From NCBI GenBank assembly GCA_905160935.1, contig CAJHZI010000447.1, positions 996,001 through 1,060,000 of the forward strand: a stretch of DNA of 64,000 bases, given 5' to 3'. Positions 9,412 through 57,345 of the stretch are shown one piece after another. Each line of letters starts with the position of its first letter. The first letter of the stretch is position 1. The stretch comes from Enchytraeus crypticus (taxonomy: Eukaryota > Annelida > Clitellata > Enchytraeida > Enchytraeidae). The notes below the pieces were generated by a model. That model was not told the origin of the DNA and ran no database searches. It saw only the letters and a program-made list of their open reading frames with translations. The position numbers and the translations under genes are program-made.

Positions 9412-9533
9412 GCTGGAGCCAGTGGCGAAGTCGGTAAGATATTCGACCGCGGATCATTATATGCGGGCTCAAATCCTGGGCTCGCCTGTCGCTGACATCG
9501 CTTTCGAGACTGACGTTAACCGTAGCTTTACCA
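9412..9533 (+). mobile_element. tRNA-derived SINE, copy 1
   Basis: The head resembles a tRNA promoter: an A-box-like TGGCGAAGTCGG near 9422 and a B-box-like GGCTCAAATCC near 9467. A body containing GACATCGCTTTCGAG and an end reading GCTTTACCAGC follow. The same unit recurs at 37560-37692 (-), 37266-37342 (-, partial), 44385-44490 (+, partial) and 24137-24170 (-, fragment). The distinct body argues for a SINE rather than a true tRNA gene. Confidence 0.8.
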
Positions 9534-30589: not shown

Positions 30590-30936
30590 GATTTCCAAAC
30601 TAGACAATATGTTACCTAAACAATCTCCACTGCCTTGTGGATGACTCGGGAGAGTAAAAGGCTATGATGACCAGCCATCAGAAATTGGGCGGACGAACTT
30701 TTTTTACTAAAGTCAACGGCCAGCTGGATAGAGATGGTGTCTCGAAAAAAATACCTGGCGGAAGGATTAATAGCCCACCGCTGTATTTGATATAGTTTAT
30801 CATGGTCAAAGGAAATAAAAATAATACCAACGGCGTTAAGGGGGTACACACTGAATAGAGGTGGGACACCTCGCTCGGTACAGAATCTTGTGTAAGACAG
30901 GGGAAACTGGACCGTCATCCAACGGCTGTCTCGGAA

Positions 30937-32079
30937 TTGGATAAATCAAGTAACCAAGTAGGTAAATGTAATAAAATAGAAAGATACACACGCTTAGGTA
31001 CATGGAATGTACGAACGCTGTACCAGGCAGGAAAATTCAGTAACATAATTCAAGAAATGAAGAGACTCAAAGTGAACATCATGGGTATGTGTGAAACAAG
31101 ATGGATTGGATCAGGCAGGGTTAATCAGGATGGTTTTACGATGTATTATTCAGGTGGTGTTCAACATATTAATGGAGTGGCTATAATAACAGATAGCATC
31201 ACATCAAAATGTGTTGATGGCCATTGGGCTATTTCGGATCGAATGATGTTGTTGAAAATCAGAACACGCCATTTCGTAATGAATATTGTTCAGGTATATG
31301 CTCCCACAGCCCAATGTGAGGAAGAAGTAATCGAGCGATTTTATGACGATTTAGAAACAGCAAAATCACAATGCAAAAGCCAAGAAATCTTAATTATAAC
31401 GGGAGATATGAATGCCAAAGTTGGAGAAGAGCAGTATGGAAATATAGTTGGAAAATATGGCCTCGGCAAGAGGAATGAACGAGGAGAAGGATTCATTAAT
31501 TGGTGCCAAAGCCACAATCAAATAATAGCTAACACATGGTACAAACAGCACAAAAGGAGAAGATATACTTGGAAGAGTCCTGGAGATAAAATAAGAAATC
31601 AAATCGATTACATAACTATCAACGAAAGATTTCGTAATTCAATCAGAAATTGCAAAACTTATCCAGGTGCAGACTGTGACTCAGACCATATTCCAGTAAT
31701 TTGCAATATACTTATAAAATTAAAAAAGATTGAAAGAAAAGAGAGAACATTAGTACAAGATTTCTCCGCTCTAATAAAAGATCAAACTATTCAATATAGA
31801 TATAAAGTAGAAGTTAAAAATAGATTCCAAGTATTGGCAGAAAATGATGGTCTGAATAACATCAACAACAAATGGGATAATTTCAAAAATGCATTAGTAG
31901 TAACAGCAAATGAAATCATCCCAGAAAAGAATATGCAAAGGAAAACTAAGTGGATAAATCAGAACATTTTACAATTAATGAAAGAACGACAAAAGATTAA
32001 AGATAGAGAAAGTATGGAGTATAGAGTTTCAAACAATGCAATAAAGAAACTTTGCAAACATGAAAAGAAGAGTGGTTAA
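30937..32079 (+). CDS. RTE-like endonuclease domain (N-terminal part of LINE ORF)
   Basis: The 380-codon frame encodes an apurinic-type (EEP) endonuclease that nicks target DNA for reverse transcription. Visible motifs are LGTWNVRTLYQAGK (Asn), CETRWIG (Glu), VQVYAPT, IITGDMNAKVG (Asp/Asn), YTWKSPGDKIRNQIDYI and CDSDHIPVI (Asp/His), so all core residues are present. The frame is open back to about 30898 without an ATG, so the true start is uncertain and 30937 is a TTG. The first in-frame ATG gives MKRLKVNIMGMCETRW. The family is the one from which ruminant CFDP2-type (BovB/RTE) endonuclease sequences derive. A frameshift at about 32060-32066 separates it from the RT frame. Confidence 0.88.
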   Translation: MDKSSNQVGKCNKIERYTRLGTWNVRTLYQAGKFSNIIQEMKRLKVNIMGMCETRWIGSGRVNQDGFTMYYSGGVQHINGVAIITDSITSKCVDGHWAISDRMMLLKIRTRHFVMNIVQVYAPTAQCEEEVIERFYDDLETAKSQCKSQEILIITGDMNAKVGEEQYGNIVGKYGLGKRNERGEGFINWCQSHNQIIANTWYKQHKRRRYTWKSPGDKIRNQIDYITINERFRNSIRNCKTYPGADCDSDHIPVICNILIKLKKIERKERTLVQDFSALIKDQTIQYRYKVEVKNRFQVLAENDGLNNINNKWDNFKNALVVTANEIIPEKNMQRKTKWINQNILQLMKERQKIKDRESMEYRVSNNAIKKLCKHEKKSG

Positions 32080-33830
32080 ACAAAAGATGTGATGAGATTG
32101 AAAAGATGAAATTTACAGACACAAGGAAAATGTACAAAGAGATAAACGAAATAACTAATCGGAAATCTAATTGCTCACATAGTAAATGCATCAAGGCTAA
32201 GAATGAAGATATTCTCATGACAAAGAAAGATATACTTGATAGATGGTCAGAGTATATCGATGACCTTTTTAAAGATAATCGAATGGAGCTCCCAGAAATA
32301 ACTAAAGAAATAGCAGGTCCTAAAATCTTAGAAGACGAAGTTAGATATGCCATTAGGAAATTAAAAAGAAACAAAGCAAGCGGACCAGATAACATAACAG
32401 CAGAAATGATTCAAGCCACGGAAGAATTTAGCGTAAAAGAGATCACGTCAATAGCAAACGACATTTATGACAATGGCGAATTTCCTAAAGATCTATTGAG
32501 ATCGATATTTATTGCATTACCGAAGAAACCTGGTGCGGTAGAATGTGAACTGCACAGAACTATAAGTCTAATGAGTGTAGTCATTAAAATCTATTTAAGA
32601 ATTCTGCTAATGAGAATGAGAAATAAAATTAGACCTGAAATAAATCCCGTGCAATATGGTTTTATGGATGATTCCGGTACAAGGAATGCTATTTTCGTTC
32701 TAAGAATTCTGTGTGAAAGAGCCATAGAATTAAATAAGGATCTATTCCTTTGTTTCATTGATTATACCAAAGCTTTTGACAAAGTTAGACACAGCAAATT
32801 GATTGATCTTCTTCATGAATTGGATATAGATGGCAAAGACGTAAGAAGTGTTAGGAATTTATACTGGAATCAAGAAGCTGCAATGAGATTTGAGAACGAG
32901 TACAGTAGCTTTTGCAAAATTAAGAGAGGAGTAAGGCAAGGCTGTGTAATGTCACCAGATCTTTTTAACTTATATAGTGAAAATATAATGAGGAATATCA
33001 GTGAAATAAAAGGATTAGTAATTGGAGGATACAATCTTAATAATATTCGTTATGCTGATGACATAGTTCTTATTGCCGACTCGAGAGACAAACTTCAAGA
33101 AATGTTGGATATTGTAACATATCATAGTGAGGCTAGTGGATTATCTATAAATATGAAGAAAACAGAATGCATGACAGTCAGCAAACTAAAAATGCCACAG
33201 CCATGCTTAATCAATGTAAGAGGTCAAAATGTCAAACAAGTTGAATCAGTCATATATTTAGGGTCACTTATTCATCAAAATGGGAAATGTGACAAGGAAA
33301 TAAACAGAAGAATAGCCATGGCTAAGGAGGCATATAACAGAATGTCAAAGATTTTTAGAAGCCATGAATTATCAATTGATACCAAAAAAAGACTTCTTCA
33401 ATGCTACATTCAACCAATATTGTTATATGAAAGTGAAGTTTGGACAATCTCTTCTGTAATGGAATCGAAACTTGAGGCAACAGAGATGTGGTTCTATAGA
33501 AGAATGCTGCGTATATCTTATAAAGACCACATTAAAAATGAAGATGTTCTACAAAGAATGTCAACTTGTCGTGACCTTTTGAACCGAATACGACGACAAC
33601 AGATGAAATTTTTCGGACACATTATGCGGAACAAAATAGTTGAAAATACCGTAGTGACAGGAATAATAGAAGGAAAAAGATGCAAGGGTCGACAACGAAT
33701 GACGTTTATTAAGAGTCTTAGCAAATGGATGCAGTTAACTGAAACAGAGATGATCAGAGCAACAATGAATAGAGACATATGGAGGAATATGACCATGACC
33801 GCCCAGGCTTGGAACAGGCACGGCACTTAA
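32067..33830 (+). CDS. RTE-like reverse transcriptase (C-terminal part of LINE ORF)
   Basis: The frame begins EEWLNKRCDEIEKM at 32067, in a frame shifted from the endonuclease, and runs to a stop at 33830. RT motifs: RKLKRNKASGPDNITAEMI (fingers), palm A CFIDYTKAFDKV (Asp near 32760), VRQGCVMSPDLFNLY, and palm C IRYADDIVLIA (about 33048-33080). The C-terminal region, typical of RTE-like LINEs, has INRRIAMAKEAYNRMSKIF, ATEMWFYRRMLRISYK and FFGHIMRNK. Catalytic Asp residues are intact and no internal stop is present. It is likely one ORF with the endonuclease in active relatives. Confidence 0.9.
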   Translation, partial: EEWLNKRCDEIEKMKFTDTRKMYKEINEITNRKSNCSHSKCIKAKNEDILMTKKDILDRWSEYIDDLFKDNRMELPEITKEIAGPKILEDEVRYAIRKLKRNKASGPDNITAEMIQATEEFSVKEITSIANDIYDNGEFPKDLLRSIFIALPKKPGAVECELHRTISLMSVVIKIYLRILLMRMRNKIRPEINPVQYGFMDDSGTRNAIFVLRILCERAIELNKDLFLCFIDYTKAFDKVRHSKLIDLLHELDIDGKDVRSVRNLYWNQEAAMRFENEYSSFCKIKRGVRQGCVMSPDLFNLYSENIMRNISEIKGLVIGGYNLNNIRYADDIVLIADSRDKLQEMLDIVTYHSEASGLSINMKKTECMTVSKLKMPQPCLINVRGQNVKQVESVIYLGSLIHQNGKCDKEINRRIAMAKEAYNRMSKIFRSHELSIDTKKRLLQCYIQPILLYESEVWTISSVMESKLEATEMWFYRRMLRISYKDHIKNEDVLQRMSTCRDLLNRIRRQQMKFFGHIMRNKIVENTVVTGIIEGKRCKGRQRMTFIKSLSKWMQLTETEMIRATMNRDIWRNMTMTAQAWNRHGT

Positions 33831-37692: not shown

Positions 37693-37911
37693 AATATAAT
37701 AGTATAATAGTATAAGGAAATTATCAGCCGGGTAGAGTGCATTTTGATCTTACTAATGAGTGATGACCGTTTATTTGTATCTTGATTAATCTACTTATAT
37801 TTGCGTGTTGATTCATGATACAAATAATAACCGCAGTTCTCTCTCTTAGCTTCCTATTATCCTCAACACCATTGATCACCTCATTATGCCATCATTTATG
37901 CCCTGTTTATA
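37693..37911. other. Short non-coding spacer
   Basis: Nothing recognised between the SINE and the family F 5' module. Confidence 0.45.
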
Positions 37912-38056
37912 TTTACAAAAATAATAACGTGTTCACTTTGGATATACATTAACTATTATATCCGTATTCATAACATTTCGTGCCTCTAACTATTTTTAGT
38001 GACTGCGCCAAGTATCGAGTTGTTCTACTTGGAAATTTTGCGATGGTTACTTATTA
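37912..38056 (+). repeat. 5' module of family F element shared with RTE
   Basis: About 145 bp nearly identical to 30447-30589 in the RTE 5' region. It lies roughly 75 bp upstream of the family F ORF start region at about 38132 and is probably its 5' UTR or promoter. Confidence 0.8.
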
Positions 38057-38129
38057 TATGCTGGATAATCACTGTGCTATAATCTACCACTTAAATTTAT
38101 AGGTAGAAATATTCGTAAGATTATTTCGC

Positions 38130-38790
38130 TATCATGCCTAATTTGTGCTGGTCGTCCATTTGAGCCATGTCCTCAAGCACGTAACGACAGTTCTGTAAAG
38201 TTCTCACTCTGTGACTTATATCGCTGTCCAGACTGCTTGGAGTATAGGTGGCCTACCTCCAGGAATAATGAGACGAATACAAGCAAGCCATCTCTCATAC
38301 AGGCTAATTCCAAGTCATATATCGAGCCTGTTTCTAACTTCAATTGTGTTTCACAAAGAACAGCTTCAGTCCGTCGCAACAATGTATCAAGCTATCAAGC
38401 CTGTAGTTCAGCTTCTACCGATTCATTACCTGCAGTCAAACACAGAACTTCTGGAGCTTGCAGTGTGTGCTTTTCTGTACATCAAATCTGCAAAAAGACG
38501 GGAGCAGTCCGCGTGCACGGTATAATGTCAAACCGTTGCCGGGGTCCCATTTTCCTCCGCGTCCAGAGTCTATTCTGTCGCTTCCCATTCAAGACGTTAA
38601 CAAAAATCCTCATTCTACCCACATTTCTGCTTCACCGCCTGAGCCCATCCTGGAACCTTCATCACCTCTGCATAAGGCTACAAGTTTGTTGCTGCACCCA
38701 TCTTTACCAAATAACACAATCAAACACATTCCTAAAGCTGCTAGACCCAGTTGTGCTAAATCTTCGGCTAATAGTCTTTAAAAAATTTCT
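38130..38790 (+). pseudogene. Family F N-terminal zinc-finger region, copy 1
   Basis: Across two or three frames this encodes CAGRPFEPCPQA, FSLCDLYRCPDCLEYRWP (a Cys/His cluster) and then SGACSVCFSVHQ, RVHG and NRC. The last set gives a second C-x2-C-x3-H type cluster. The minus-strand copy 2 shows the same order, starting MPKCAGRPFEPCAQARNDSS. Such N-terminal fingers in RT elements usually bind nucleic acid; that role is inferred. A one-base frameshift right after the ATG at about 38132 breaks copy 1. Confidence 0.7.
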
Positions 38791-38826
38791 AATTATCCAC
38801 GGAATATAAATGACTGGAGCCACTTA

Positions 38827-39840
38827 TTGAATTTTGGAAAGGAGGTTCTAATTGCACCTCCTCGTGCAGGGAAACGTATGAATCTGTCTAATGTAATAAA
38901 GAAAAGATCAGAACTCTTTGATTGTCGTAAAGAGACTGCTCTCCCCAAGCAGAAGTCTAATCGTTCTCCTGGCAATTCTGACAAGCTATATTCACTCATC
39001 AGGTCGAAAATAGAATACGGCAACATGAGGGCTGCGGTCAGACTGCTATGCTCGGATGATACTCTTGCCGCAGACAATCCGGACACTTTGCAGAACCTGA
39101 AAGATAAGCATCCATTACTTTCAGAGGTTCTTCTGCCCGCTCCTGATCCTTTCACTACTCAATCATTTCAAGCCTCAGAGAATGATATTTTGCATGCTGT
39201 TCGTAGTTTTCCAGCAGGTTCTTCTGCTAGTCCAGATGGTATTAGACCACAACATATTCTAGACTTAGTAAATGATCGGGTTTCCGGACCCATTCTTCTC
39301 CCAGCTCTTACCTCCTTCACCAACACTCTACTGAACGGTGAGTGCCCGGACCCTATTAGGAAACTTCTGTTTGGTGGACGCCTAATAGCCATAGGTAAGA
39401 AAGATGGTGGAGTTCGTCCTATTGCCATTGGATACACCTGGAGGCGTATCGCAGCTAAATGCGCAAATGCACATATTTCATCTAAAGTGACATCATTCCT
39501 TTCGCCTATTCAGGTGGGTGTTGGAGTAAGCGGGGGCTGCGAAGCAACTGTTCATGCAGTCAGACGTTTTCTCACTTCGTTGCCGGAAAAGTTCAGTGTA
39601 GTTAAATTAGACTTCAAGAATGCGTTCAATAATGTAAACAGATTTCAGATGCTTCAAGAAGTCTACAAATCTATCCCAGAGATATACAAATTTTACTCTC
39701 ATCATACTGTGCAACGTCACACCTCAAATACAACGAGCACATCATTGAGTCTATTATATGGTTGGTGTTCAGCAGGGAGATCCTATTGGACCACTTCTAT
39801 TCAGCCTCACTATTCATCCTCTGCTGAAATCTCTGAATAG
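38827..39840 (+). pseudogene. Family F reverse transcriptase, fingers and palm A, copy 1
   Basis: The frame begins NFGKEVLIAPPRAGKRMNLS. It continues with LHAVRSFPAGSSASPDGIRP, IAIGKKDGGVRPIAIGYTWR (finger/palm motif), SPIQVGVGVSGGCEATVHAV and palm A VVKLDFKNAFNNVNR (Asp at about 39610). After about 39700 a frameshift leads into junk, and the true frame resumes in the next entry. The pattern is that of RT elements with a C-terminal restriction-like endonuclease, not of APE-type LINEs. Confidence 0.85.
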
Positions 39841-40717
39841 CACTCTGAGAGTTACATACTTAGACGATGTGACTCTTGGAGGAAATGAGGATTCATTAAG
39901 CCATGATATGTGCAATATTATGGAGAATGAAAAAATTCTTGGCCTAGAGTTGAACCTGAATAAATGTGAAATAGTTTCTCCCTGCCCTCAAACAATACGC
40001 CATCCAATCCTACACTTATTCACAATGATACCCCAGGATGAGAGTGCACTTCTCGGAGCTCCTCTATCATTCGGAATTGCCATGGACAAATCCCTCTCGG
40101 CCAAAATTGCGGATCTTGAACTGGCCTCAAGTCGTTTGCCATTGATCTCGAAACATGATGCTTTGACAATACTTCGATATTCTCTTAGTATTTCTAAAAT
40201 GTTGTACACACTGAGATCATCTACTTGCTTCAATCACCCAGGATTAATAACATTTGATAATAAACTGAAAGAGTGCCTTTCCACGATATCTAACATTGTC
40301 CTGTCTGATACTCAGTGGTCACAGGCTACTCTACCAGTTAAGAAAGGTGGGTTAAGTATTAGACAAACATCGCATGTTTCGCCCTCAGCATTCATATCTT
40401 CATACATTTCTACCAGGTCACTTCAGGATTCCATTCTAGGTCAATTCTCATCCTATCATGATGTCAACTTTGATCTTGCTCTTTCACTATGGTCTGAACG
40501 GTATAACGCTGTAACTCCAACTGGAGATCAAGATAAAATACAAAAATTCGGGGATGCAGCAGCCATCGAAAAATGCTTTGAGCAGATTTTAAATTTTAAA
40601 TCTGACGCATCTGATAGAGCAAGGCTCCTGGCTGTTTCTAGTCTAGGAAGCAGTGACTGGTTACACGCCTTCCCTATCTTATCCTGCGGCCTTCATTTGG
40701 ATGACGAAGTGCGTTAA
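39758..40717 (+). pseudogene. Family F reverse transcriptase, palm C and thumb, copy 1
   Basis: This continues RT in a new frame: GVQQGDPIGPLLFSLTIHPL (motif B), then VTYLDDVTLG (palm C YLDD, about 39858) and LGLELNLNKCEIV. The thumb follows, with HDALTILRYSLSISKMLYTL and LPVKKGGLSIRQTSHVSPSA. It ends WLHAFPILSCGLHLDDEVR, where a second frameshift occurs. Copy 2 carries the same blocks (VVYLDDLTLG). Confidence 0.85.
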
Positions 40718-41069
40718 AGTGGCTATTGGCTTCAGACTTGGTGTTCGGCTATGTGAGCCACACACTTGTCCATGTGGTTCCATAGTAGACTCAAGAGGCA
40801 TCCACAGTCTATCGTGCAAGAGGAGTGCAGGTAGGGCTAGTCGACATCACAATCTTAACGACATCGTTTGGCGTGCTCTAACCAAAGCCAGCATTCCTTC
40901 TATCAAGGAGCCTCCGGGTCTCTTTCGGTCTGATGGAAAGCGTCCGGATGGCCTTACGCTCATACCGTGGCGAAAGGGTAAATGCTTAGTAGGGGATGGA
41001 ACAGTCTCTGATACCCTAGCCAATTCTAACCTTCACGTAACGTCATCTTCAGCTGGCGGAGCAGCCTAA
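40653..41069 (+). pseudogene. Family F Cys-His knuckle and restriction-like endonuclease, copy 1
   Basis: It encodes RLGVRLCEPHTCPCGS, GIHSLSCKRSAGRASRHHNL (a C-x-C...H-x3-C knuckle), WRALTKASIPSIKEPPGLFR, SDGKRPDGLTLIPWRKGK and CLVGDGTVSDTLANS. The order of zinc knuckle, R-P-D-G, then G-D-G-T-V fits a PD-(D/E)XK restriction-like endonuclease, the nicking domain of REL-type non-LTR elements. A stop after SSSAGGAA and a frameshift separate it from the next frame. The fold assignment is inference from motif order. Confidence 0.75.
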
Positions 41070-41104
41070 CTGGCTGCCAGAAGGAAACTTGAGAAATTAG
41101 GGAT

Positions 41105-43990
41105 TTGCCTTCAGTCTACAACTTCATGCCAATAGCAATTGAAACATATGGCCCAATGAATGAAGCTGCCTCAGAGTTTATCAGTATATTAGGTAGAAAA
41201 ATTTCAGATATTACCGATGATAATCGTGAAACATCTTTCTTGAGGCAAAGAATCTCAATGGCTCTTCAACGCTTTAATGCTGTCTGTTTTAGAGGATCGT
41301 TTTCTCATTCTGATGATCCAGCTTATGAGGATAATGGGAATCCTACTAACTCTCATGGTTTACCTGTCTCGATGTCTACAGCTGCTATGACCACAAATCT
41401 TGCTGATGCACCAGACAGAGCCATGCCTTCAGATTTTGATTCCATTTCAAGCTCCTGTTTGTTTAATCCTTTGACAGCGCCACTTGAAACTTCTGAACCT
41501 GTCAATGTAGCACATCCACTGCTTTCCTCGATCTCTCATGATGAGTCATCGTATGATTTAGAAGTGGTAGGTTTGAATGAGAAAGATAGAAACGATGTCG
41601 TAGCAGATAACATGGATATCTTTAACTCAGCTGCTACTGATACAAAAAGAAGCAGACGAGGATCTCGCAGATCTGTTCTTGACCTGACCATCGTTGAAGC
41701 TAAAGCAATGTGTGGAGATATGGATAATTCATCCAGTCGACAACTAAGGAAGCGTAAACCACATCCGGAATCTAAAGTTAACGAGGTTTACGAGACTCGT
41801 GAAAAGAGAAAACAGAAGCCTGAAAAGGCAATGAACTTTATAGTCACAGACCCCAAGAAAAATGAAGAGCCAGAAGGAAATATCCTAGAGAAATCATCGG
41901 TTGAAAAATCATCATTTTCAAGAATAAAATCGCCTGAATCAAGTAAGATCCTTATGTATGATCGCAGTTTTCTTCTAGAGTATCGTAACTCGGTGGCCAT
42001 CAGCCCCCTCACAAATCTACCCTACATCCCTGGGATCTCATATGTCAAGGAGCTGTCCGGGTTTACCGGCTCTACTCTCGATACACCCGGTAAACTATTG
42101 CATTATTCTGCTTCCCACAATCATCAGATTGCTAATAGAGTGAGTTGGGTGGCGGGGTTGAAGCAGAAGAAAGTAAAAGTATTTAAAGGTAGAGCTGTAT
42201 GTCCGTGTTCTGCTGAAATTTGTGTCTCGGTTGACAAGTCACAAACAAATTTCAAACGTCGCGTGTTGTCGCCTGAAGTCTCTAAATTATTTGAGCCCCT
42301 CAACATCGATGACATTGCATTACCTCGATGTTCTACATCATCAATAGGGAATATGTCGCTGCACAAATCTTCAGCTATCGCTTACGCAATCAGCTACGAC
42401 GTGGATTTGCTGATGCCGCTAACCTCGAGAGTTCTGTGCAGTGGTAGTGTTTCGCTAGTATTGAACCTTAGTTTTGCCCCAGTGCAGAACTTCCACCACA
42501 TCGCAGTGCCAATTATCAAGACCTATGGGACTCAGCAGGGATCGGCGCTGGTGGCTCTGAATAGTCATGGTTATGGATATTATGTATCTCATTTGCCCGA
42601 GTCTTATTCAAGATACTACGCGGAGAAGATTCCTAAACCAGACACTTACTACTGTCATCCATCGAGCGTTGTTCGTCTCACTCCTACTGCGAGCATTGCT
42701 GTGGGCCACACCCATAGAGATCTGGACAAAATAGAGCAAGAACTAAAGTCAAGCGCAACGCTGGCGCTCCTTACTACGCCGTTACCTTCCATTCGAGCCT
42801 ATGCGTCTAAGATTAAAGTCAAGCGAGAATGTAAGAGAGAAAAATTCCTAGACGCCAAACTAAGAAAAAAGAAGCTGGTCGTTAAGGGTGGTGATGAGGA
42901 TAAATCAGCAGAATATGATGAGACTGGGGAGGCGGCGGCTGGGGTGGCTGCTATCTCGGAGGCGGAGAAAAACTACCCAGAGAAGATCAACAAGGACAGT
43001 GCCTTGCTCTACAAGAATAAGCAAAAGCAGGGAGGGGATCAGGTGGAGGTTCCTGTAGTGGATGTTCTGAAGCTGTTGACAGCGGAAATGAAGAATCAGG
43101 AGGTTGAGGATGACGTCGTCCTGCTTGAGGTCTCGTCGGCCATGACTCATGATCTCTCCAGTGACGTCCTGGTGGAATGGAAACTGGTGCGAGACGAATT
43201 GCTCGAAGGGGATGTTCCACCTCATGAGCTGTCTGTAACAGCTGTTAACGAGGCAGAAAGTGACGTGCTGATGGAAGGAGTGATGGTTTCAGACGAACTG
43301 TTTGATGAAGACGTACTTGACAACGTCGAGCGCGTACAAGATCATCATGTTCATGATAACATCCAGCACGATGAGACGTCAGTGGAGGGAGAGATAGTAG
43401 ACGTTGAGATACTTGATAATGAAGCCCATGGAAGCGACCCCTATCAGCATGGTGCTAAAGTTCATCTTGAACAATATAGCGCCGACGTACATCATGAACA
43501 ACACTGTGCTGATCATGAACAGCACGGTGCTCAAGATCATCATGAACAGCTCGGTACTGAAGATCATCATGAACAGCTCGGTACTGAAAAACATCATGAA
43601 CTGCACGGTGCTAAAGATTATCATGAACAACACAGTGCTGAAGATCATTGTGAACAGCATGAGAAGCATGATCTAATCGATAATCACGGCCGTCAGACAC
43701 TTTATAAGAAACAGAAGAAGATGCAGTCGTGGAGGCCTCAGATTCAGCGGGTGCTTCATTTCAATCTCCTGAAGCCACAACAACAACATCGGAGCTTCGA
43801 TCGACAGCATATCGGGTTTACTGTGAGCTCACCAGGATCATCTGGCTCCCTGCCTCCACCGCACTCCTCGACCCATAAACCTCTGCGAGGGGCAGGGCCT
43901 CAGTTCTCGAGCCTGGCCACTGCGAGTGTTGACTCTACAGTGAGGCGCCCCACGTTCATGGGTCACCCGCCGCAGAACCCGATCGGATGA
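41105..43990 (+). CDS. Family F C-terminal frame with 4E-BP-like motif and His-rich repeats, copy 1
   Basis: This open frame of about 961 codons starts mid-protein. Residues 1-75 finish the endonuclease (VYNFMPIAIETYGPMNEAAS, then LRQRISMALQRFNAVCFRG). At about residues 197-222 is VLDLTIVEAKAMCGDMD followed by a basic run, also present in copy 2. At residues 282-318 KILMYDRSFLLEYRNS ... NLPYIPGIS matches the eIF4E-binding core of 4E-BPs (Y-x4-L-hydrophobic, then LP-x-IPG). Residues about 320-560 are unrecognised, Cys/Ser-rich. An acidic region follows from about 600, then roughly nine repeats of the HGAxDHHEQ type (43441-43668). The same frame continues past the TGA at 43988 to about 44384. 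I do not recognise the whole protein. Confidence 0.7.
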   Translation: MPSVYNFMPIAIETYGPMNEAASEFISILGRKISDITDDNRETSFLRQRISMALQRFNAVCFRGSFSHSDDPAYEDNGNPTNSHGLPVSMSTAAMTTNLADAPDRAMPSDFDSISSSCLFNPLTAPLETSEPVNVAHPLLSSISHDESSYDLEVVGLNEKDRNDVVADNMDIFNSAATDTKRSRRGSRRSVLDLTIVEAKAMCGDMDNSSSRQLRKRKPHPESKVNEVYETREKRKQKPEKAMNFIVTDPKKNEEPEGNILEKSSVEKSSFSRIKSPESSKILMYDRSFLLEYRNSVAISPLTNLPYIPGISYVKELSGFTGSTLDTPGKLLHYSASHNHQIANRVSWVAGLKQKKVKVFKGRAVCPCSAEICVSVDKSQTNFKRRVLSPEVSKLFEPLNIDDIALPRCSTSSIGNMSLHKSSAIAYAISYDVDLLMPLTSRVLCSGSVSLVLNLSFAPVQNFHHIAVPIIKTYGTQQGSALVALNSHGYGYYVSHLPESYSRYYAEKIPKPDTYYCHPSSVVRLTPTASIAVGHTHRDLDKIEQELKSSATLALLTTPLPSIRAYASKIKVKRECKREKFLDAKLRKKKLVVKGGDEDKSAEYDETGEAAAGVAAISEAEKNYPEKINKDSALLYKNKQKQGGDQVEVPVVDVLKLLTAEMKNQEVEDDVVLLEVSSAMTHDLSSDVLVEWKLVRDELLEGDVPPHELSVTAVNEAESDVLMEGVMVSDELFDEDVLDNVERVQDHHVHDNIQHDETSVEGEIVDVEILDNEAHGSDPYQHGAKVHLEQYSADVHHEQHCADHEQHGAQDHHEQLGTEDHHEQLGTEKHHELHGAKDYHEQHSAEDHCEQHEKHDLIDNHGRQTLYKKQKKMQSWRPQIQRVLHFNLLKPQQQHRSFDRQHIGFTVSSPGSSGSLPPPHSSTHKPLRGAGPQFSSLATASVDSTVRRPTFMGHPPQNPIG
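41948..42047 (+). other. 4E-BP-like eIF4E-binding motif (copy 1)
   Basis: Codons read ILMYDRSFLLEYRNSVAI and then TNLPYIPGIS. Human 4E-BP1 has YDRKFLMECRNS and DLPTIPGVT at equivalent spacing, one residue longer between the two parts. The canonical Y-x4-L-L motif and the IPG elbow are both present. Confidence 0.75.
43441..43668 (+). repeat. His/Glu/Gln-rich coding tandem repeats
   Basis: About nine imperfect 24-33-bp units encode variants of (H/L)GA-x-(D/V)HHEQ, one reading TEDHHEQLG. Reading frame is kept through all units. Confidence 0.85.
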
Positions 43991-44384
43991 CCGGCTGGGT
44001 TGATCCCTCGGGTTCTTCTGAGTCCTGACACCGCCACCTCTCAGCCGCCTCAAGATGGCTACGCTCAACCCACGACTGACCTGCTCTCACCTTTCGACGT
44101 CAACCGTTCGTCCAATCTGGAGATCAATGCTCTGAAACAGCCTCTCGGTAGAGCTCAGTCTGCTCCTACGAGATCTGATCAGCAGTTGTTTGGTCTACCA
44201 CAGCTACATCAACAGCAGCCTGGTGCTGCTGGAATGAGGCAGGAGCGCAGCAGTCAGCTATTTGGTGGGGAGCAATTTTCTATGATATTGGAGTTGGTGA
44301 AGAGCGAGATGGGAGTGGAATCTGAGAGCAGGTCTACCTCCCCGGGTGGTGAAGAATCGTACTTAAATCTACCATCACCAACAA
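43991..44384 (+). pseudogene. In-frame continuation after TGA at 43988, copy 1
   Basis: The frame used at 41105-43990 stays open from 43991 to about 44384. It encodes a Gln/Pro/Ser-rich tail (LLSPFDVNRSSNLEINALKQ; SDQQLFGLPQLHQQQPGAAG; GGEQFSMILELVKSEMG). A single TGA therefore separates it from the long frame. It ends where a SINE is joined. Function unknown. Confidence 0.65.
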
Positions 44385-44490
44385 CATATTCGATTGCAGC
44401 TCGGTGTGTGCAGGGTTCTAATCCTGGGCTCGCCCGTCACTGACATCGCTTTCGAGTGGGGAAGCTGACGCTGATATTGGCTTTGCCGGC
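44385..44490 (+). mobile_element. tRNA-derived SINE, partial copy
   Basis: B-box-like GGTTCTAATCCTGGGCTCGC, body GTCACTGACATCGCTTTCGA, and an end GCTTTGCCGGCATTT. The A-box half is missing at the junction with family F. Confidence 0.75.
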
Positions 44491-44849
44491 ATTTAATTAA
44501 TGCGTTATCTACATTAGTATTTTCTAAAATTTGCTTGTAAGTAAACTTAAATTCTAATAATATCTCGATTTTCTCACTTGAATTCGATTGAACTCCGTAC
44601 GGATTTAATAAATCTAATATTAAGACACTATATATCAAACCCAGACGTGGATATATAACATATTAGTGAAATATTATATTTATCTTTAAAAAGGATATCA
44701 AGAATCTGGACTTTGTACCCTCGTCTCACCTGTATCTACGATACTAAATTTACTTGATCACTCGTCATATTTTAAAGTGCAACGTGAACACCCATGCTCA
44801 TGCGTATAGAGATTCACCCCGAGACCTAGCTCTCTCTCTCTCTCACACT
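44491..44849. other. Non-coding spacer before family B copy 4
   Basis: AT-rich. No feature until a short (CT)n at 44831-44842 just before the LINE ORF1 start. Confidence 0.45.
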
Positions 44850-51714: not shown

Positions 51715-52570
51715 TACAGCACATAACTTCTATTTTCTTCACGTGATCCCTGCAAGCCATCAGTGCCTCTTTCAAATTCTGAGCAGCAGCCGGCAGACAT
51801 GTGGATCATCCACTCATCTGGCCAACGTACGTCGTCAGTCTCATTGTCTCGTCTCTCGCCAGATAGCGAGCTACACTCAGGGGGACTTCTTGTCCTGGCC
51901 CTGACATGACCTTGCTCTTTTGCTTAGCGCAATCTGCTGGAATTCCCCACAAATGGATTTTCACCTGAGGACTCGCTAGATGATTGGGCAGGCAGACATA
52001 CCGACCAGATATGAGCGAGACATGCAGGGTGGAGGGCTGAAAAGCGTAGATGTCTTTGACAAAAAGGGTTGAAGCGGTTGTAGAGGGTGTGCGTAGCGTC
52101 CCACATTACCTGGGGCTTCAGAATGTAGCCACACCTCCCGTTCGGCTCAAACATCGCTGTGTTTATGTGCAGTCATGAGTCTTCAGTTTTTTAGTTGAGC
52201 GCGGTGATGCGGAACTCACAGTGGTTGACGACTCCTATGGGCTGTTTTCTGCAGATGTGCTTAGCCTTGTTCTCATTGAGGGAAGAGAACTGATAGGCTG
52301 TGGGCTTGTCGCTGTCCTCCTGCCTGCCTCTCATCTGTAGACCAGGGGGCAGCACATACTTCTCCCCAGCCTCCAGAGAGTCGCGGTGCACTGTTAAGCT
52401 GTTGGCGTGAAGAAGACTTCTTTGTGTCACCATTTTCCTCCGTCGGGACATGGGCGGGGTTATTATCAGTCTTATGAACTTGACAGCTTGTGTGTAGATG
52501 ACGAAGTCAGAGAGAACCTGGGCGACGTCTGTTTTCTTCTTCTTCATGTTCTTTGGAGTTTGCTCCACCT
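51715..52570 (-). pseudogene. PLCE1: Processed phospholipase C-epsilon-like pseudogene (Y domain and C2)
   Basis: Minus-strand frames match PLC-epsilon in order: VLSDFVIYTQAVKF (start of the Y half of the catalytic domain), YQFSSLNENKAKHICRK, then NTAMFEPNGRCGYILKPQVM, WDATHTLYNRFNPF, and C2-domain pieces SLISGRYVC and IPADCAKQKSKV. Human PLCE1 has LSDLVIYCQAVKF, HISSLNENAAKRLCRR and [20 protein letters not shown]. There are no introns across at least 800 bp, several frameshifts and stops, and a loss of about 35 residues between the Y-domain blocks. It is a dead copy inserted in the LTA4H intron, probably by retrotransposition. The symbol names the nearest family member. Confidence 0.75.
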
Positions 52571-52682
52571 CTCTGTCACTGCTTGTCTGCCAGTCAGCCC
52601 CAGCACTGGCGTCGCTCTTAGGTCTAACTTTAACGTCGCCGCCAGAGGGTCATATATCGCTGAATCTTTCAGTGTTCGCTGT

Positions 52683-53130
52683 CTACAACCCTTGACCACC
52701 TTGACCTACAATCCCCTTGACCACACCTGACTCTGACTTTCTGATGTCCTGTCTGAGGAGCTGGAGATGCTCAAACTTGTCCTTACCAGCGATCACATTG
52801 TCCGCCTGAATGGTTGTAATAAAGTCAGAATAGTAGATGAAGGTTCGTGTTGTAAGGCTCTCCATATGTGGACGAAGGTCAAAATCCAGTATTTTAGCTA
52901 TCATCATTGCATTGGCAAGATTCCAATTAGAGATGTCCAACTGTGAAAAATACCCAATGGTTGCAAATTTTCCTCTGGAAGCTGGTAGTAGGAGACTCCA
53001 TAGTTTGCTGCATCTTCTGTTCTCTCGGACTGGCGAGGATTGGGCGAAGTGGATCCCTTCGAAGTTTTCCCGTTCATGCCAGGGCTAGAACCATTAGAAA
53101 AGAAAATTACCTTGACGTTTGTAACCCCAG
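52683..53130 (-). other. Unassigned minus-strand coding-like stretch
   Basis: Frames here read ISNWNLANAMMIAKILDFDL and MESLTTRTFIYYSDFITTI (52683-52940) and GVSYYQLPEENLQPLG (52990 region). They look like protein-coding sequence between the family F tail and the PLC-epsilon-like piece, but I cannot name a family. They could be part of either. Confidence 0.4.
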
Positions 53131-53590
53131 GGATTGTAGGTTTGTGAGGGGCCTCTGGGCTAGGAGCGAAATACAACGTTCTAATAGGAAACTGCGGGCA
53201 TATGTAATTATCCTACCTGAATCATTAGATATAGAATTCACCGCTGAATAGGACATTTCAGATGAGTCTACTGGTTTTCATCAGGCTCTGTCCTTTCTAA
53301 TGATATCCAACTTTTAAAAGCATTGCATTTGTAACCCCCTGTTCCCCCTCGACAAGGATCCTGTTAAACTGTGCACCTCTCCTCCTCTGCTGTCTTCCCG
53401 ATAAAGTGTCCATGTCTCCACTGAGTGCTTTAGCTTCAGCAAGAGTCAGCACGAAATTAGATCTGTGAGGGCACTTGTTTCGTCTCAATTTAGCGGGGGA
53501 TGCTAAATTGAAGTAGTTATTCATTTTAACTTCAGAATTGACACTTATTTCCTTCGCCTCTAAAATTACCACATGCAAATTAACCATTGC
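53130..53590 (-). pseudogene. Family F C-terminal region with 4E-BP-like motif, copy 2
   Basis: Minus-strand frame 53297-53587 has VLTLAEAKALSGDMD followed by GRQQRRR, matching VLDLTIVEAKAMCGDMD plus basic run in copy 1. Further downstream, in broken frames, come RIITYARSFLLE (about 53205-53170) and HKPTIPGVTNVKV (about 53150-53110). These are the two halves of a 4E-BP-like eIF4E-binding core, closer to 4E-BP in the second half (IPGVT). A frameshift separates them. Confidence 0.7.
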
Positions 53591-53839
53591 TTCATCGATG
53601 AAATCTCAGAATTTTGAAAGTGAGAATTGTCGACAGAATTTGAATTTATCTGCCATCTTTGGTCAGATATACTGGGATCTGCAGATAGGGAAACTAGCTG
53701 AGTGCAACACGCATCAGCTAGATTCCTACAGACTGCAGCCGAATCATTTAGAACATCGAAATGCTGCGAAACAGGCACATTCTGAGGAAGAAGTTCCTGT
53801 ACTGAACTCAACGGGCACCCAGCAGAACGATTTGATTCT

Positions 53840-54300
53840 GGACAAATTCAATATGACACATTCGGAACGTCGGCACATGTACCAATACAAGCGTCAATAA
53901 CAGATACGTCAGGAGTAGAAAACTGTAGGGAAACGTTTGAAACATTTGAGTCATCATATGCTGAATTGAACGTTGTACAAAATGATCCTCTGAAGCAAAC
54001 AGCTTTGAAACTTTGCAGAGCCATCGAGACCCATTGTCTTGGGAATGAGGTTTCACGCTTCTCGCCTGATAATGCAGAAATTCTGCTTCCTAATGCAGAA
54101 ACAAATTCTGAGGCTGCTTCATTCCAATGACCAAATGTTTCTATGGCTATAGGTAGAAAATCATATGCGGACGGCAAACTTCTACATTTATCTGATTTTC
54201 TTTTGGCGGCTAATTCCTCTGCACTGCCCACCAAAGTAGAACTATCATGTACATAAGATTTAGCTAGGATATCAGTAACCGCTACATCCCAGGCCAAGCA
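53840..54300 (-). pseudogene. Family F endonuclease C-terminal part, copy 2
   Basis: The minus-strand frame 53848-54297 reads WDVAVTDILAKSYVHDSS, SAYDFLPIAIETFGHWNEAA, then SALGSRISALSGEKRETSFP and SMALQSFKAVCFRGSF. This is the restriction-like endonuclease core and end, parallel to copy 1 at 40990-41310. WD-x-x-V-T matches the family-typical catalytic block better than copy 1 does. Confidence 0.8.
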
Positions 54301-57230
54301 TTAACCACTTTGTCATGGAATATGAGTTAGCCAGTCTGGACGATTACCATCTGAGCGGAAGAGACCAGGGGTTCCTTGATTGAAGGAATGCTAGCTTTAG
54401 CAAAAGCACGCTATATTATCCATTAACATTGCTGCCTGCGCTTCTCTTATAGGATAAGATGTGTACCCCCTTCGAGTCCACTATAGCTCCACAGGGACAG
54501 GAACGTGGCTCACAAATCCTAGCACCCAGTCTAAAGCCTACTACAACTCGGACAGATTCACCGTCTAAGTGTAGCCCACAGGCAGAAATGGGTAACGTAT
54601 CATTGAGCCAGTCACTACTTCCAGGAGCAGAGACCGCAAAGAGTCGGGCTCTATCTGTTGAGTCAGATTGACAAATAAGAATATGCTGAAAGTTCTTTTC
54701 TATGGCAGGTGCGTCCCAGTATTTCTGAAATTTTGTAAATTCGTAAGATGGGCCTGCAGTACTCTATAGCTCATTCCAAGGGGAGGGGGCATTGATAAAA
54801 TAATCATCTGCATGTGAATTAGAATGACTAAGGATTGAGTCTTATAATGCTTTAGTTAAAGGATGGCATAAATGCTGCTGGAGCCAAATGCGACACTTGC
54901 CTTATCCCCAAAGCTCCATGTTTAACCAGAAGAATGGCCCGAGCCCACTGGGAATCAGTCAAACTGATGCTAGTCAAACGGGAAAGGCATTCTCTCAGCT
55001 TTTCATCAAAGGTTAATACGGCACAATGATTGCAACTGCGCGATGAACGTAGTGTGTACATTAGCTTAGGAGCACTAGGACAGTATCTTAGCAACGTCAA
55101 TGCATCACGTCTGGAAATAAGCAACAGACGTTTAGAAGTGCGCTGAATGTCTGCAATCCTAGAATCTATCGATTGGTCCATGGCACTACCACAAATTAAT
55201 GGAGCCCCAAGAAGTGAACTTTCTCTCGGCTCTAACTTAGTGAAGGACTGAAGTAACAGGTGACAGAAAGACTCATTATTGAAGGATATTAATTCGCACA
55301 TATTCCGATTTAATTCCAGACCTATATGTACACCCATTTAGATTAACTTATTGACAGTTTGAATTATAACTTCCTCGGTGTCTCCTAAGGTTAAATCATC
55401 CAGATATACGACAGCTAGAGGAAAATTAAGAGATTTTAAGAGGGGAGGAATTGTTAGGCTAAACAAAAGAGGCCCTAGAGCATCTCCCTGCTGGACGCCT
55501 ACAGCTAATTCGATGGTGTGCTCACTGAATTTCAAGTATGAACTGCCCCAATATGACAAATGACAGAATTTGTAGATCTCCGGGATCAAACTGTGCACTT
55601 CCTGAAGCATTTTCAATCTGTTCACATTATTGAACGCATTTTTGAAGTCTAAATTCACGACGTAGTATGATTCTGGCATCGATAGGAGAAAGCGGCGAAC
55701 AGCATGAACGGTAGCTTCGCAACCACCATTTAGAACCACACCCACTTGAATCGGAGACAGGAGAGAGGCGACTCTTGCAGCCACGCGGGCATTAGCACAT
55801 TTGGCAGCGATACACCTCCACGTGTAGCCTATAGAATCGGGCGAACTCCTCCATCCTTCTTACCTATGGCAATTAGTCTACCACCAATAAGCAACTTCTT
55901 AATCGCGTCAGGGCAGATTCCATTCAGAAGAGTATCGGTAAAGTCTGTGAGCGAGGGTAGCAGGATAGGACCTGCGATTCTATCATTCAGCAGATCCAGA
56001 ATGTGTTGAGGTTTGACACCATCAGGACCACCAAAAGAGTGTACTGGAAAACTTAGAACTGCCTTGAGTACCTCATCCTCTGAGACCTGAAAAGCCTATG
56101 TATTCAAAGGATCAGGTGGTGTTGCTTGAATTTCTGTGAGAGAAGGGTGCTTGTCTTTACGAGCCTGACGGGTGTCTTGGTTGTCGGCAGCAAGAGAATC
56201 CTCAGAACATAAGAGTCTGACTGCCGCTCTCATGTTACCATCTTCTATTTTATATCTGACACTAGAGCATAATGTGTCGAGACTGCTACGACAGCGATTG
56301 TTCTTAATTTTCTGCTTAGAGTAAGCGATCTCATTGCAACTATCATACAATTCAGCCCTCTTCTTAACAACATTAGACAAATTCATTCTTTTACCAGCAC
56401 GAGGAGGTGCAACTAAAACATCTTTTCCATAGTTCAGTAGGTTGAAGGAATCCTCAATAATCTGTGGAAACCTGGACATTTTCATGAGTGCATTAGCCAA
56501 CACGGTAGCGCACTGAAGTCTGGGAGTCTTTGGAATATGTTTAATTGTATTATTTGGAAGGCTTGGGTGCAGCAATTTTATGGATTGACTCACCAGTGAC
56601 TGTTACAGACTCAATATCAATTGAGGAGACACGCAAGATTTAAAGGTTATTTGAGGACTATTTCCGTTTTCATGAAAGGTACGAGTCAGTGTAGACTCTA
56701 GACGTGGAGAAAGATGTGAACCTGGACAACGGTTTGAAACTTTCCCGTATACGCGAATTGTGCCTGTGTCTTGCTTTACTTGTGTATGGAAAGGCATACG
56801 CTACAATCACCAGTTGACTTGTATTTGACCGTAGATAATGGCTCGGAGGTACTGTTATGTGGAGCCTGACTAGAGTTTTCTAAGTTCTTGACTGAGTCTA
56901 GGCTTAAATCACATAGCGAGGCTTCTGATGTATCATCACTAGTATTACTGATTTCGTGCTCAATCACCGGACTACAGGTCTGCGAGAGTTGAAAGTTAAG
57001 GTGACGGGTAGATGTTATTCCTTGCAAAGCGTTTGCAGATTCAGAAACTGCCTCAACCATTTCTTGCCATAACTATCTACCTTGTGATAAATCACAATAG
57101 GTTGGCCACCTGTGCTCTAAGCATTCGACGTAGAGGTATAAATCACATAGAGAATATTTAACTGAACTATCATTGCGAGCTTGAGCGCATGGTTCAAATG
57201 GGCGACCAGCACATTTAGGCATGATAGCGA
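54300..57230 (-). pseudogene. Family F retroelement body, copy 2
   Basis: Read leftward from 57223: zinc-finger start MPKCAGRPFEPCAQARNDSS and YSLCDLYLYVECLEHRWPT, then DCSVCLSIHKQ and RVYG. Next are LLHPSLPNNTIKHIPKTPRL, YGKDVLVAPPRAGKRMNLSN, IAIGKKDGGVRPI, SPIQVGVVLNGGCEATVHAV and palm A YVVNLDFKNAFNNVNR (about 55650). GVQQGDALGPLLFSLTI, VVYLDDLTLG (about 55390), thumb blocks to 54852, then ICEPRSCPCGAIVDSKGVH (about 54500) complete the body. Frames 56096-56593, 55338-55784 and 54852-55337 are open between breaks. It starts cleanly at its ATG, whereas copy 1 has a frameshift there. Confidence 0.85.
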
Positions 57231-57345
57231 AATTAATCAGGTGGCATCAGGATACAAAGGTAATTAAATTCGAAAAAAATCGATTAATAAATTAATGATG
57301 GTATTTATATTTCAAAAAATAAACATCCGCCATTTTACGTAATGT
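57231..57345 (-). promoter_or_regulatory. Family F 5' region, copy 2, with YY1-like string
   Basis: Reading the minus strand, ACGTAAAATGGCGGATGTTT (about 57345-57326) precedes the ORF by about 100 bp. AAAATGGCGG resembles a YY1 binding site, which positions the start of transcription in some LINEs. The RTE element begins with the similar TTAAATGGCGAATGTTTAC at 30432-30450. Function is inference. Confidence 0.35.

What the first reader, a model, noticed from the sequence alone, without database searches (positions are those of the whole stretch)
41105..43990. A retroelement carrying a 4E-BP-like eIF4E-binding module
Seen: downstream of the RT and restriction-like endonuclease, copy 1 encodes ILMYDRSFLLEYRNS ... 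LPYIPGIS. Known: the 4E-BP core is RIIYDRKFLMECRNS ... LPTIPGVT, which binds the dorsal face of eIF4E through Y-x4-L-hydrophobic and the IPG elbow. Inference: the element may engage host cap-dependent translation, for instance to favour its own RNA or repress others. I know of no retrotransposon described with such a module.
Basis: partly seen in the sequence, partly recalled or inferred. Interest (0 to 1): 0.88.

Follow-up and report, generated by a model that had tools for sequence, protein, structure and literature searches.

The report
Retrotransposon carrying captured host 4E-BP exon
A family of jumping genes in this animal genome has taken the eIF4E-binding exon of the host's own translation repressor 4E-BP, and in one branch pieces of at least two other host genes, into its long protein; two nearly identical, hence recent, copies still carry the 4E-BP exon.

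Summary
Copy 1 encodes a 4E-BP core (PF05456 positions 46-81; E 3.9e-4 for the ORF). It is not a one-copy curiosity: in the window's 524-Mb genome the module was read in 50 further places, in two diverged element subfamilies (26 A, 24 B), in window copy 2 (frame-broken), and in two young copies alike at 1259 of 1261 bases. It is homologous, not convergent: it matches exon 2 of a host 4E-BP gene (contig C591), starting near that exon's acceptor. Subfamily B continues with an inositol-3-phosphate synthase exon and, in some copies, PLC-epsilon exons joined without introns, so spliced host RNA was captured. The module shows moderate purifying selection (copy 1 vs copy 2 dN/dS 0.38; internal-branch ratio 0.43-0.53), weaker than the endonuclease tail (0.25). 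Caveat: the 50 places were found by 4E-BP score, which favours conserved ones. Young copies keep Tyr, Leu-Leu and Ile-Pro-Gly but changed Asp-Arg. Extra constraint on contact residues was not robust. eIF4E binding is plausible and untested. Best reading: a LINE that collects host exons, its shared one a 4E-BP exon that may still bind eIF4E.

The parts
37910..44501 (+). Copy 1, subfamily A element
   Evidence: L032 aligns 37910-44501 at 92% and L050 37911-44525 at 94%
38782..40717 (+). Reverse transcriptase, frame-broken in this copy
   Evidence: RVT_1 in two frames, 23.8 and 37.4 bits, cut-off 29.6; ORFs
40647..41069 (+). Restriction-like endonuclease with C.CG...H...C and KRPDG
   Evidence: translation; relatives; meaning of the motifs recalled
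41093..41332 (+). Endonuclease tail (..NAVCFRGSF); 8 of 11 relatives found end 4-15 aa after it
41661..41753 (+). Conserved box RRSVLDLTIVEAKAMCGDMD in the linker, function unknown
   Evidence: shared with copy 2; internal-branch N/S ratio 0.48
41942..42055 (+). 4E-BP module: YDRSFLL at 41957-41977, IPG at 42026-42034
42056..43990 (+). Open C-terminal tail of subfamily A, origin unknown; an in-frame TGA ends it in this copy
   Evidence: shared by A copies; fold of 42125-42889 without alignment pLDDT 28, uninformative
43512..43659 (+). 27-bp tandem repeat coding His/Glu-rich units
43991..44443 (+). Continuation of the open frame after the TGA
   Evidence: L031 and L032 stay open for 846 and 838 residues from the motif, i.e. 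past this point
44408..44494 (+). SINE-like piece at the element's 3' end
   Evidence: similar pieces at 37642-37557, 37347-37273, 9462-9508
51806..57238 (-). Copy 2, subfamily B element, frame-broken
53110..53224 (-). 4E-BP module of copy 2, split by a frameshift
52712..52938 (-). Inositol-3-phosphate synthase (MIPS) exon in copy 2
   Evidence: Pfam PF07994 7.9e-9, PDB 5.9e-9, host exon L069
52225..52649 (-). Three PLC-epsilon exons joined without introns
51809..52172 (-). Further PLC-epsilon sequence, in two frames

Best explanation
This is an R2-related (restriction-like endonuclease) LINE family whose ORF carries a long C-terminal extension built partly from host exons. Shown: both subfamilies, A and B, carry most or part of exon 2 of a host 4E-BP gene at the same place; B carries next an inositol-3-phosphate synthase exon and then, in some copies, PLC-epsilon exons, in others the A-type tail; the PLC-epsilon exons lack their introns. 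Inferred: one capture of the 4E-BP exon, then inheritance (or exchange between subfamilies, which the tails show to occur). Inferred: capture by read-through transcription and splicing of the element's RNA into downstream host exons, followed by retrotransposition. Inferred: the module still docks on eIF4E through the Y-x4-L-hydrophobic helix and the IPG elbow. Least certain: as LINE proteins act on their own mRNA (recalled), this would displace eIF4G from that RNA and move it from translation to reverse transcription.
For: Homology and source: host exon 2 on C591 matches most B copies from about -10 to +170 at 65-73% DNA identity and A copies from about +12 to +111-133; copy 1's module is 64% identical in protein to C591, 48% to C652. 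Constant place. In frame with the enzyme: L031 (1443 aa) and L032 (1293 aa) are each open from the endonuclease through the module into the tail. Recent: L070 and L071, on different contigs, match at 1259 of 1261 bases and both carry the module; they belong to a group of 18, among 150 scored endonuclease-tail matches, with an open frame of exactly 1685 aa (the other 16 were not read). Selection: copy 1 against copy 2 dN/dS 0.38 in the module, P 0.013, and 1.0 in the preceding linker; internal-branch N/S ratio 0.43, P 5e-4 and 0.53, P 0.013. Capture of spliced RNA; MIPS exon boundaries.
Against: No binding or translation data. The copies in the tree tests were found by 4E-BP score, which favours conserved copies; in line with that, terminal branches too show ratios under 1 (0.68, 0.61). 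The two young copies have Val-His for Asp-Arg. In B, 4 of 24 copies have Ile and 1 Pro at the canonical Leu. Contact residues are no more constrained than the rest of the module in one analysis (3.5 syn, 4.5 nonsyn), though they were in the other (6 syn, 1 nonsyn, my sum). Joints are not all clean: B's match begins up to 10 bases inside host intron 1 (chance not excluded), A's 11 bases inside the exon; from exon 2 start to the MIPS exon B has about 30 bases more than the 246-base exon (my arithmetic).
Confidence: 0.55

Rival explanations
1. Passenger exon: host exons are trapped at the 3' end and kept because they lie in the frame of an active element; the 4E-BP piece does nothing with eIF4E now, and its constraint reflects only keeping a stable or soluble tail.
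For: Other captured exons (MIPS, PLC-epsilon) have no obvious use to a retrotransposon. Module constraint is weaker than in the endonuclease tail, contact-site excess is not robust, and copies were picked by 4E-BP score. The two young copies changed Asp-Arg.
Against: The 4E-BP module is shared by A, B and the two young copies while what follows differs between A and B. Nonsynonymous change between copies 1 and 2 is lower than in the preceding linker (P 0.002). All six contact residues are the majority residues in A, in B and in the host exon (P 0.04, 0.05, 0.05, not independent).
Confidence: 0.37
2. Capture by template jumping of the R2-type reverse transcriptase between host RNA fragments and element RNA rather than by splicing.
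For: R2 reverse transcriptase makes continuous cDNA from separate templates (PMC8857657, outline and abstract read); spliced PLC-epsilon RNA would serve as template; the 4E-BP ends are not exact at exon borders.
Against: The MIPS piece begins at the first base of a host exon in 4 of 5 copies aligned, and the PLC-epsilon piece within 1-2 bases of a host acceptor, which random RNA ends would rarely give.
Confidence: 0.25
3. Convergent short linear motif unrelated to 4E-BP.
For: Y-x4-L-hydrophobic motifs are short and can arise by chance (recalled).
Against: DNA-level homology to a host 4E-BP exon over up to about 180 bases, continuing past the motif.
Confidence: 0.01
4. A host gene or host-element fusion at this one locus rather than a property of the element.
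For: Copy 1's reverse transcriptase is broken while 41093-43990 is open.
Against: 17 of the 20 long loci fetched (not the B copies L034, L043, L047) align to copy 1 across the module and into the tail at 89-95%.
Confidence: 0.03

Closest known systems
4E-BP / eIF_4EBP (PF05456)
   Same: Y-x4-L-hydrophobic helix and IPG elbow; DNA homology to host exon 2
   Different: Most element matches cover only profile positions about 46-82 (a few reach 89-114); none begins before 45, so no exon 1; embedded in a retrotransposon protein
R2-type restriction-like-endonuclease LINEs
   Same: Reverse transcriptase then endonuclease; relative P0007 matches R2 chains at E 6e-7
   Different: Extension of up to about 1060 aa after the endonuclease (L031); 8 of the 11 relatives found end 4-15 aa after it (stop or contig end not told apart)
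Retroelements that capture extra ORFs, e.g. bdelloid LTR retrotransposons (PMC5408684; listing and abstract start only)
   Same: Extra coding modules added to a retroelement
   Different: Non-LTR element; host exons in the frame of the enzyme; a translation-factor ligand
L1-mediated exon shuffling by 3' transduction (recalled)
   Same: Host exons carried 3' of a LINE
   Different: Here exons became a standing part of multi-copy families

Membership tests
4E-BP (PF05456) | Y-x4-L-hydrophobic eIF4E-binding helix | tested here: met
   25 of 26 A and 21 of 24 B copies, Leu or Ile allowed at the first position; copies picked by 4E-BP score; also in L070, L071
4E-BP (PF05456) | IPG elbow after the helix | tested here: met
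   24 of 26 A and 18 of 24 B copies; both motifs in 23 and 15
4E-BP (PF05456) | Whole-protein profile score over the cut-off | tested here: inconclusive
   Copy 1 ORF 20.7 bits, below 24; 13 non-host matches over it, one of them (L016) not confirmed; young copy L071 no hit
4E-BP (PF05456) | Full-length small protein with exon 1 (RAIP) and TOS motif | tested here: not met
   No element match begins before profile position 45; no RAIP by eye; TOS not scanned. So it is not a 4E-BP protein; it carries a 4E-BP exon
4E-BP (PF05456) | Binds eIF4E and competes with eIF4G | not testable with these tools
   needs experiment
RLE LINE (R2-related) | Reverse transcriptase domain | tested here: met
   RVT_1 37.4 bits, cut-off 29.6
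RLE LINE (R2-related) | C-terminal restriction-like endonuclease | tested here: met
   C.CG, H, C and KRPDG columns invariant in 11 relatives and present in copy 1; that these mark the endonuclease is recalled
RLE LINE (R2-related) | Place in a named clade by tree | not tested
   no reference set of LINE clades at hand

The most novel reading that the evidence does not exclude
A recently active LINE family encodes, inside its long protein, a working 4E-BP-type eIF4E ligand captured from its host, uses it to shut translation of its own RNA before reverse transcription, and evolves by trapping one host exon set after another at its 3' end.
Probability: 0.28. Interest if true: 0.95.

Novelty: new variant of a known kind. 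Interest (0 to 1): 0.86.

Why it matters
It links a genomic parasite to the cap-binding machinery through the host's own repressor exon, with the source gene in the same genome, diverged subfamilies and nearly identical young copies, so function and selection are directly testable. It also looks like a natural, multi-copy case of exon shuffling by a non-LTR element, with pieces of several host genes fused in series into one mobile element.

Tried and rejected
Convergence and single-locus fusion were rejected by the own-genome loci. The idea that each copy carries its own random host RNA after the module was held after and dropped: A copies share the tail and 20 distinct B copies share MIPS. 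A DNA-alignment version of the selection test gave 0.74 for the endonuclease tail, 0.54 for the module and 0.84-0.96 for the linkers; it was set aside as noisy for in-frame matches, where linkers and the stretch after the module were not usable. One search's tree was midpoint-rooted and did not return A as one clade; the later tree splits A and B, 38 of 38. Homology into host intron 1 is inconclusive. No convincing target-site duplication was found at the three elements looked at (only 6-7 base matches) nor earlier. Two protein searches found nothing; viral and prokaryote contigs gave nothing. The tail's fold was useless. The source of the A tail was not found: its genome search did not complete. 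The other extended family (L072) has no Pfam hit. No paper joining a retrotransposon with a 4E-BP module stood out in the listings of searches.

Full report
What is there. The ORF 41093-43990 follows a frame-broken reverse transcriptase and endonuclease. Its first 80 residues are the endonuclease tail. Residues 283-318 match Pfam eIF_4EBP positions 46-81, E 3.9e-4, and 4E-BP1 in the PDB, E 4.5e-4. Copy 2 on the minus strand is 51-65% identical in its reverse transcriptase pieces and has the same module at 53224-53110, broken by a frameshift; DNA similarity over the module scores 85 against at most 37 in 2000 shuffles.

The module in the genome. PF05456 gives 57 matches there. Four are exons of two host 4E-BP genes (C652, C591). 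One is copy 1. Of the other 52, 50 were confirmed with a profile seeded from copy 1; L016 and L059 were not. They fall into subfamily A (26, like copy 1) and B (24, like copy 2; copy 2 itself is not among the 57). Of the 26 loci L005-L030, copy 1 included, 20 have the endonuclease tail and 24 the tail or the linker. 17 of the 20 long loci align to copy 1 across the module and into the tail at 89-95%, so the tail belongs to the element too.

Source. The C591 gene's exon 2 (246 bases between an acceptor-like TTTCAG and a donor-like GGTATG; no transcript was seen) matches most B copies from about -10 to +170 and A copies from about +12 to +111-133. Copy 1's module is nearer to C591 (64% protein identity) than to C652 (48%). 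No element match begins before profile position 45, so exon 1 was not captured. The small match to the end of host intron 1 in B is inconclusive; if real, it would speak against a clean splice.

Other captured exons. In B the module is followed by an inositol-3-phosphate synthase piece: 22 loci, 20 distinct copies, of the 24 B copies; 53 genome matches in all, exons and pieces of one copy counted apart. Of five copies aligned to the host exon on C440 (L069), four begin at its first base and window copy 2 four bases later; the matches run to or a few bases past its donor. Window copy 2 and L014 continue with PLC-epsilon; a third intronless place is on C363. The host gene on C759 has these residues on three exons, introns of roughly 1.1 and 0.9 kb. 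In the element they follow each other directly, at 86-93% identity; the joints lie within 0-3 bases (copy 2) or up to 9 bases (L014), and the first piece starts within 1-2 bases of a host acceptor. Four other B copies (L011, L021, L034, L043) continue with the A-type tail instead; in L034 and L043 this tail is 87-89% identical to copy 1 although the endonuclease is 73% identical, so tails have been exchanged. A relative from another source, P0003, has an extension of about 850 aa with a Thyroglobulin type-1 piece just over its Pfam cut-off (20.8 against 20.6 bits; weak in PDB, E 0.02). None of the 11 relatives shows the 4E-BP motif pair.

Is it active and selected? L031 and L032 keep one open frame of 1443 and 1293 aa from the endonuclease through the module into the tail. 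Most copies do not: the frame is open from the tail to the module in 7 of 26 A and 1 of 24 B copies by a rough pattern test. A search with the endonuclease tail (150 scored of 6733 candidates, so a lower bound) lists 18 matches with an open frame of exactly 1685 aa. I read two of them (L070, L071, 1259 of 1261 bases alike): both carry the module, with Val-His for Asp-Arg after the Tyr and Ser for Pro before the elbow. Pfam does not recognise this version. Between copies 1 and 2 dN/dS is 0.38 in the module, 1.0 in the preceding linker, 0.63 in the linker before, 0.36 in the conserved box, and 0.09 in the endonuclease tail and in the one reverse transcriptase stretch that was not saturated. Internal-branch N/S ratio of the module is 0.43 in 50 copies (P 5e-4) and 0.53 in 34 copies (P 0.013), against 0.25 for the endonuclease tail (29 copies). 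Terminal branches give 0.68 and 0.61, less than the neutral 1; the copies were found by 4E-BP score, which lowers both. The six contact residues (chosen from general knowledge) are the same in the majority of A, of B and in the host exon (P 0.04, 0.05, 0.05). A test for extra constraint on them disagreed between analyses.

How it may work. Shown: origin, position, in-frame fusion in some copies, intronless exons, recent copies, moderate constraint. Inferred: exon trapping by splicing, from the MIPS and PLC-epsilon borders. Inferred: eIF4E docking as in 4E-BPs (dependence on Y-x4-L and IPGVT is stated in PMC12644199, passages read). Inferred: a switch of the element's RNA from translation to reverse transcription. 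The passenger reading is the main rival.

Other families. One copy of a second endonuclease LINE family in the same genome (L073) stops 7 aa after its ..CFNNSF. One copy of a third (L072) has a long open extension without the module and without a Pfam hit. So the 4E-BP exon is, so far, a mark of this family.

Noticed in passing
L072 (C737:500700-502080, minus strand): A different, multi-copy endonuclease LINE family with a 460-codon open stretch running well past the endonuclease tail, no Pfam hit; 26 places share its score. It may hold other captured exons.
   Followed up: partly
41661-41753: A conserved box (RRSVLDLTIVEAKAMCGDMD) between endonuclease and module, internal-branch ratio 0.48, no Pfam or PDB hit for its surroundings.
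   Followed up: partly
42056-44400: The A-type tail, with His/Glu tandem repeat and strong codon-position bias, is shared with some B copies at higher identity than the enzyme part; its source gene was not found.
   Followed up: partly
44408-44494: SINE-like sequence at the 3' end of A elements, similar pieces at 37642-37557, 37347-37273 and 9462-9508; a SINE may share this LINE's 3' end.
   Followed up: no
P0003 residues 1095-1124: Thyroglobulin type-1 repeat in the extension of a related element from another source, perhaps an independent exon capture.
   Followed up: partly
41661-42125 vs 38830-41330: Synonymous divergence between copies 1 and 2 is lower in the extension (0.50) than in the enzyme part (0.74), P 1e-4 (sums, test), a hint of recombination; alignment choice could bias it.
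   Followed up: no
30859-33830: Another LINE with two long open frames (406 and 588 aa) in the same window.
   Followed up: no
C652 and C591: Two host 4E-BP paralogs with the same exon boundary; the element module is nearer to the C591 type.
   Followed up: yes
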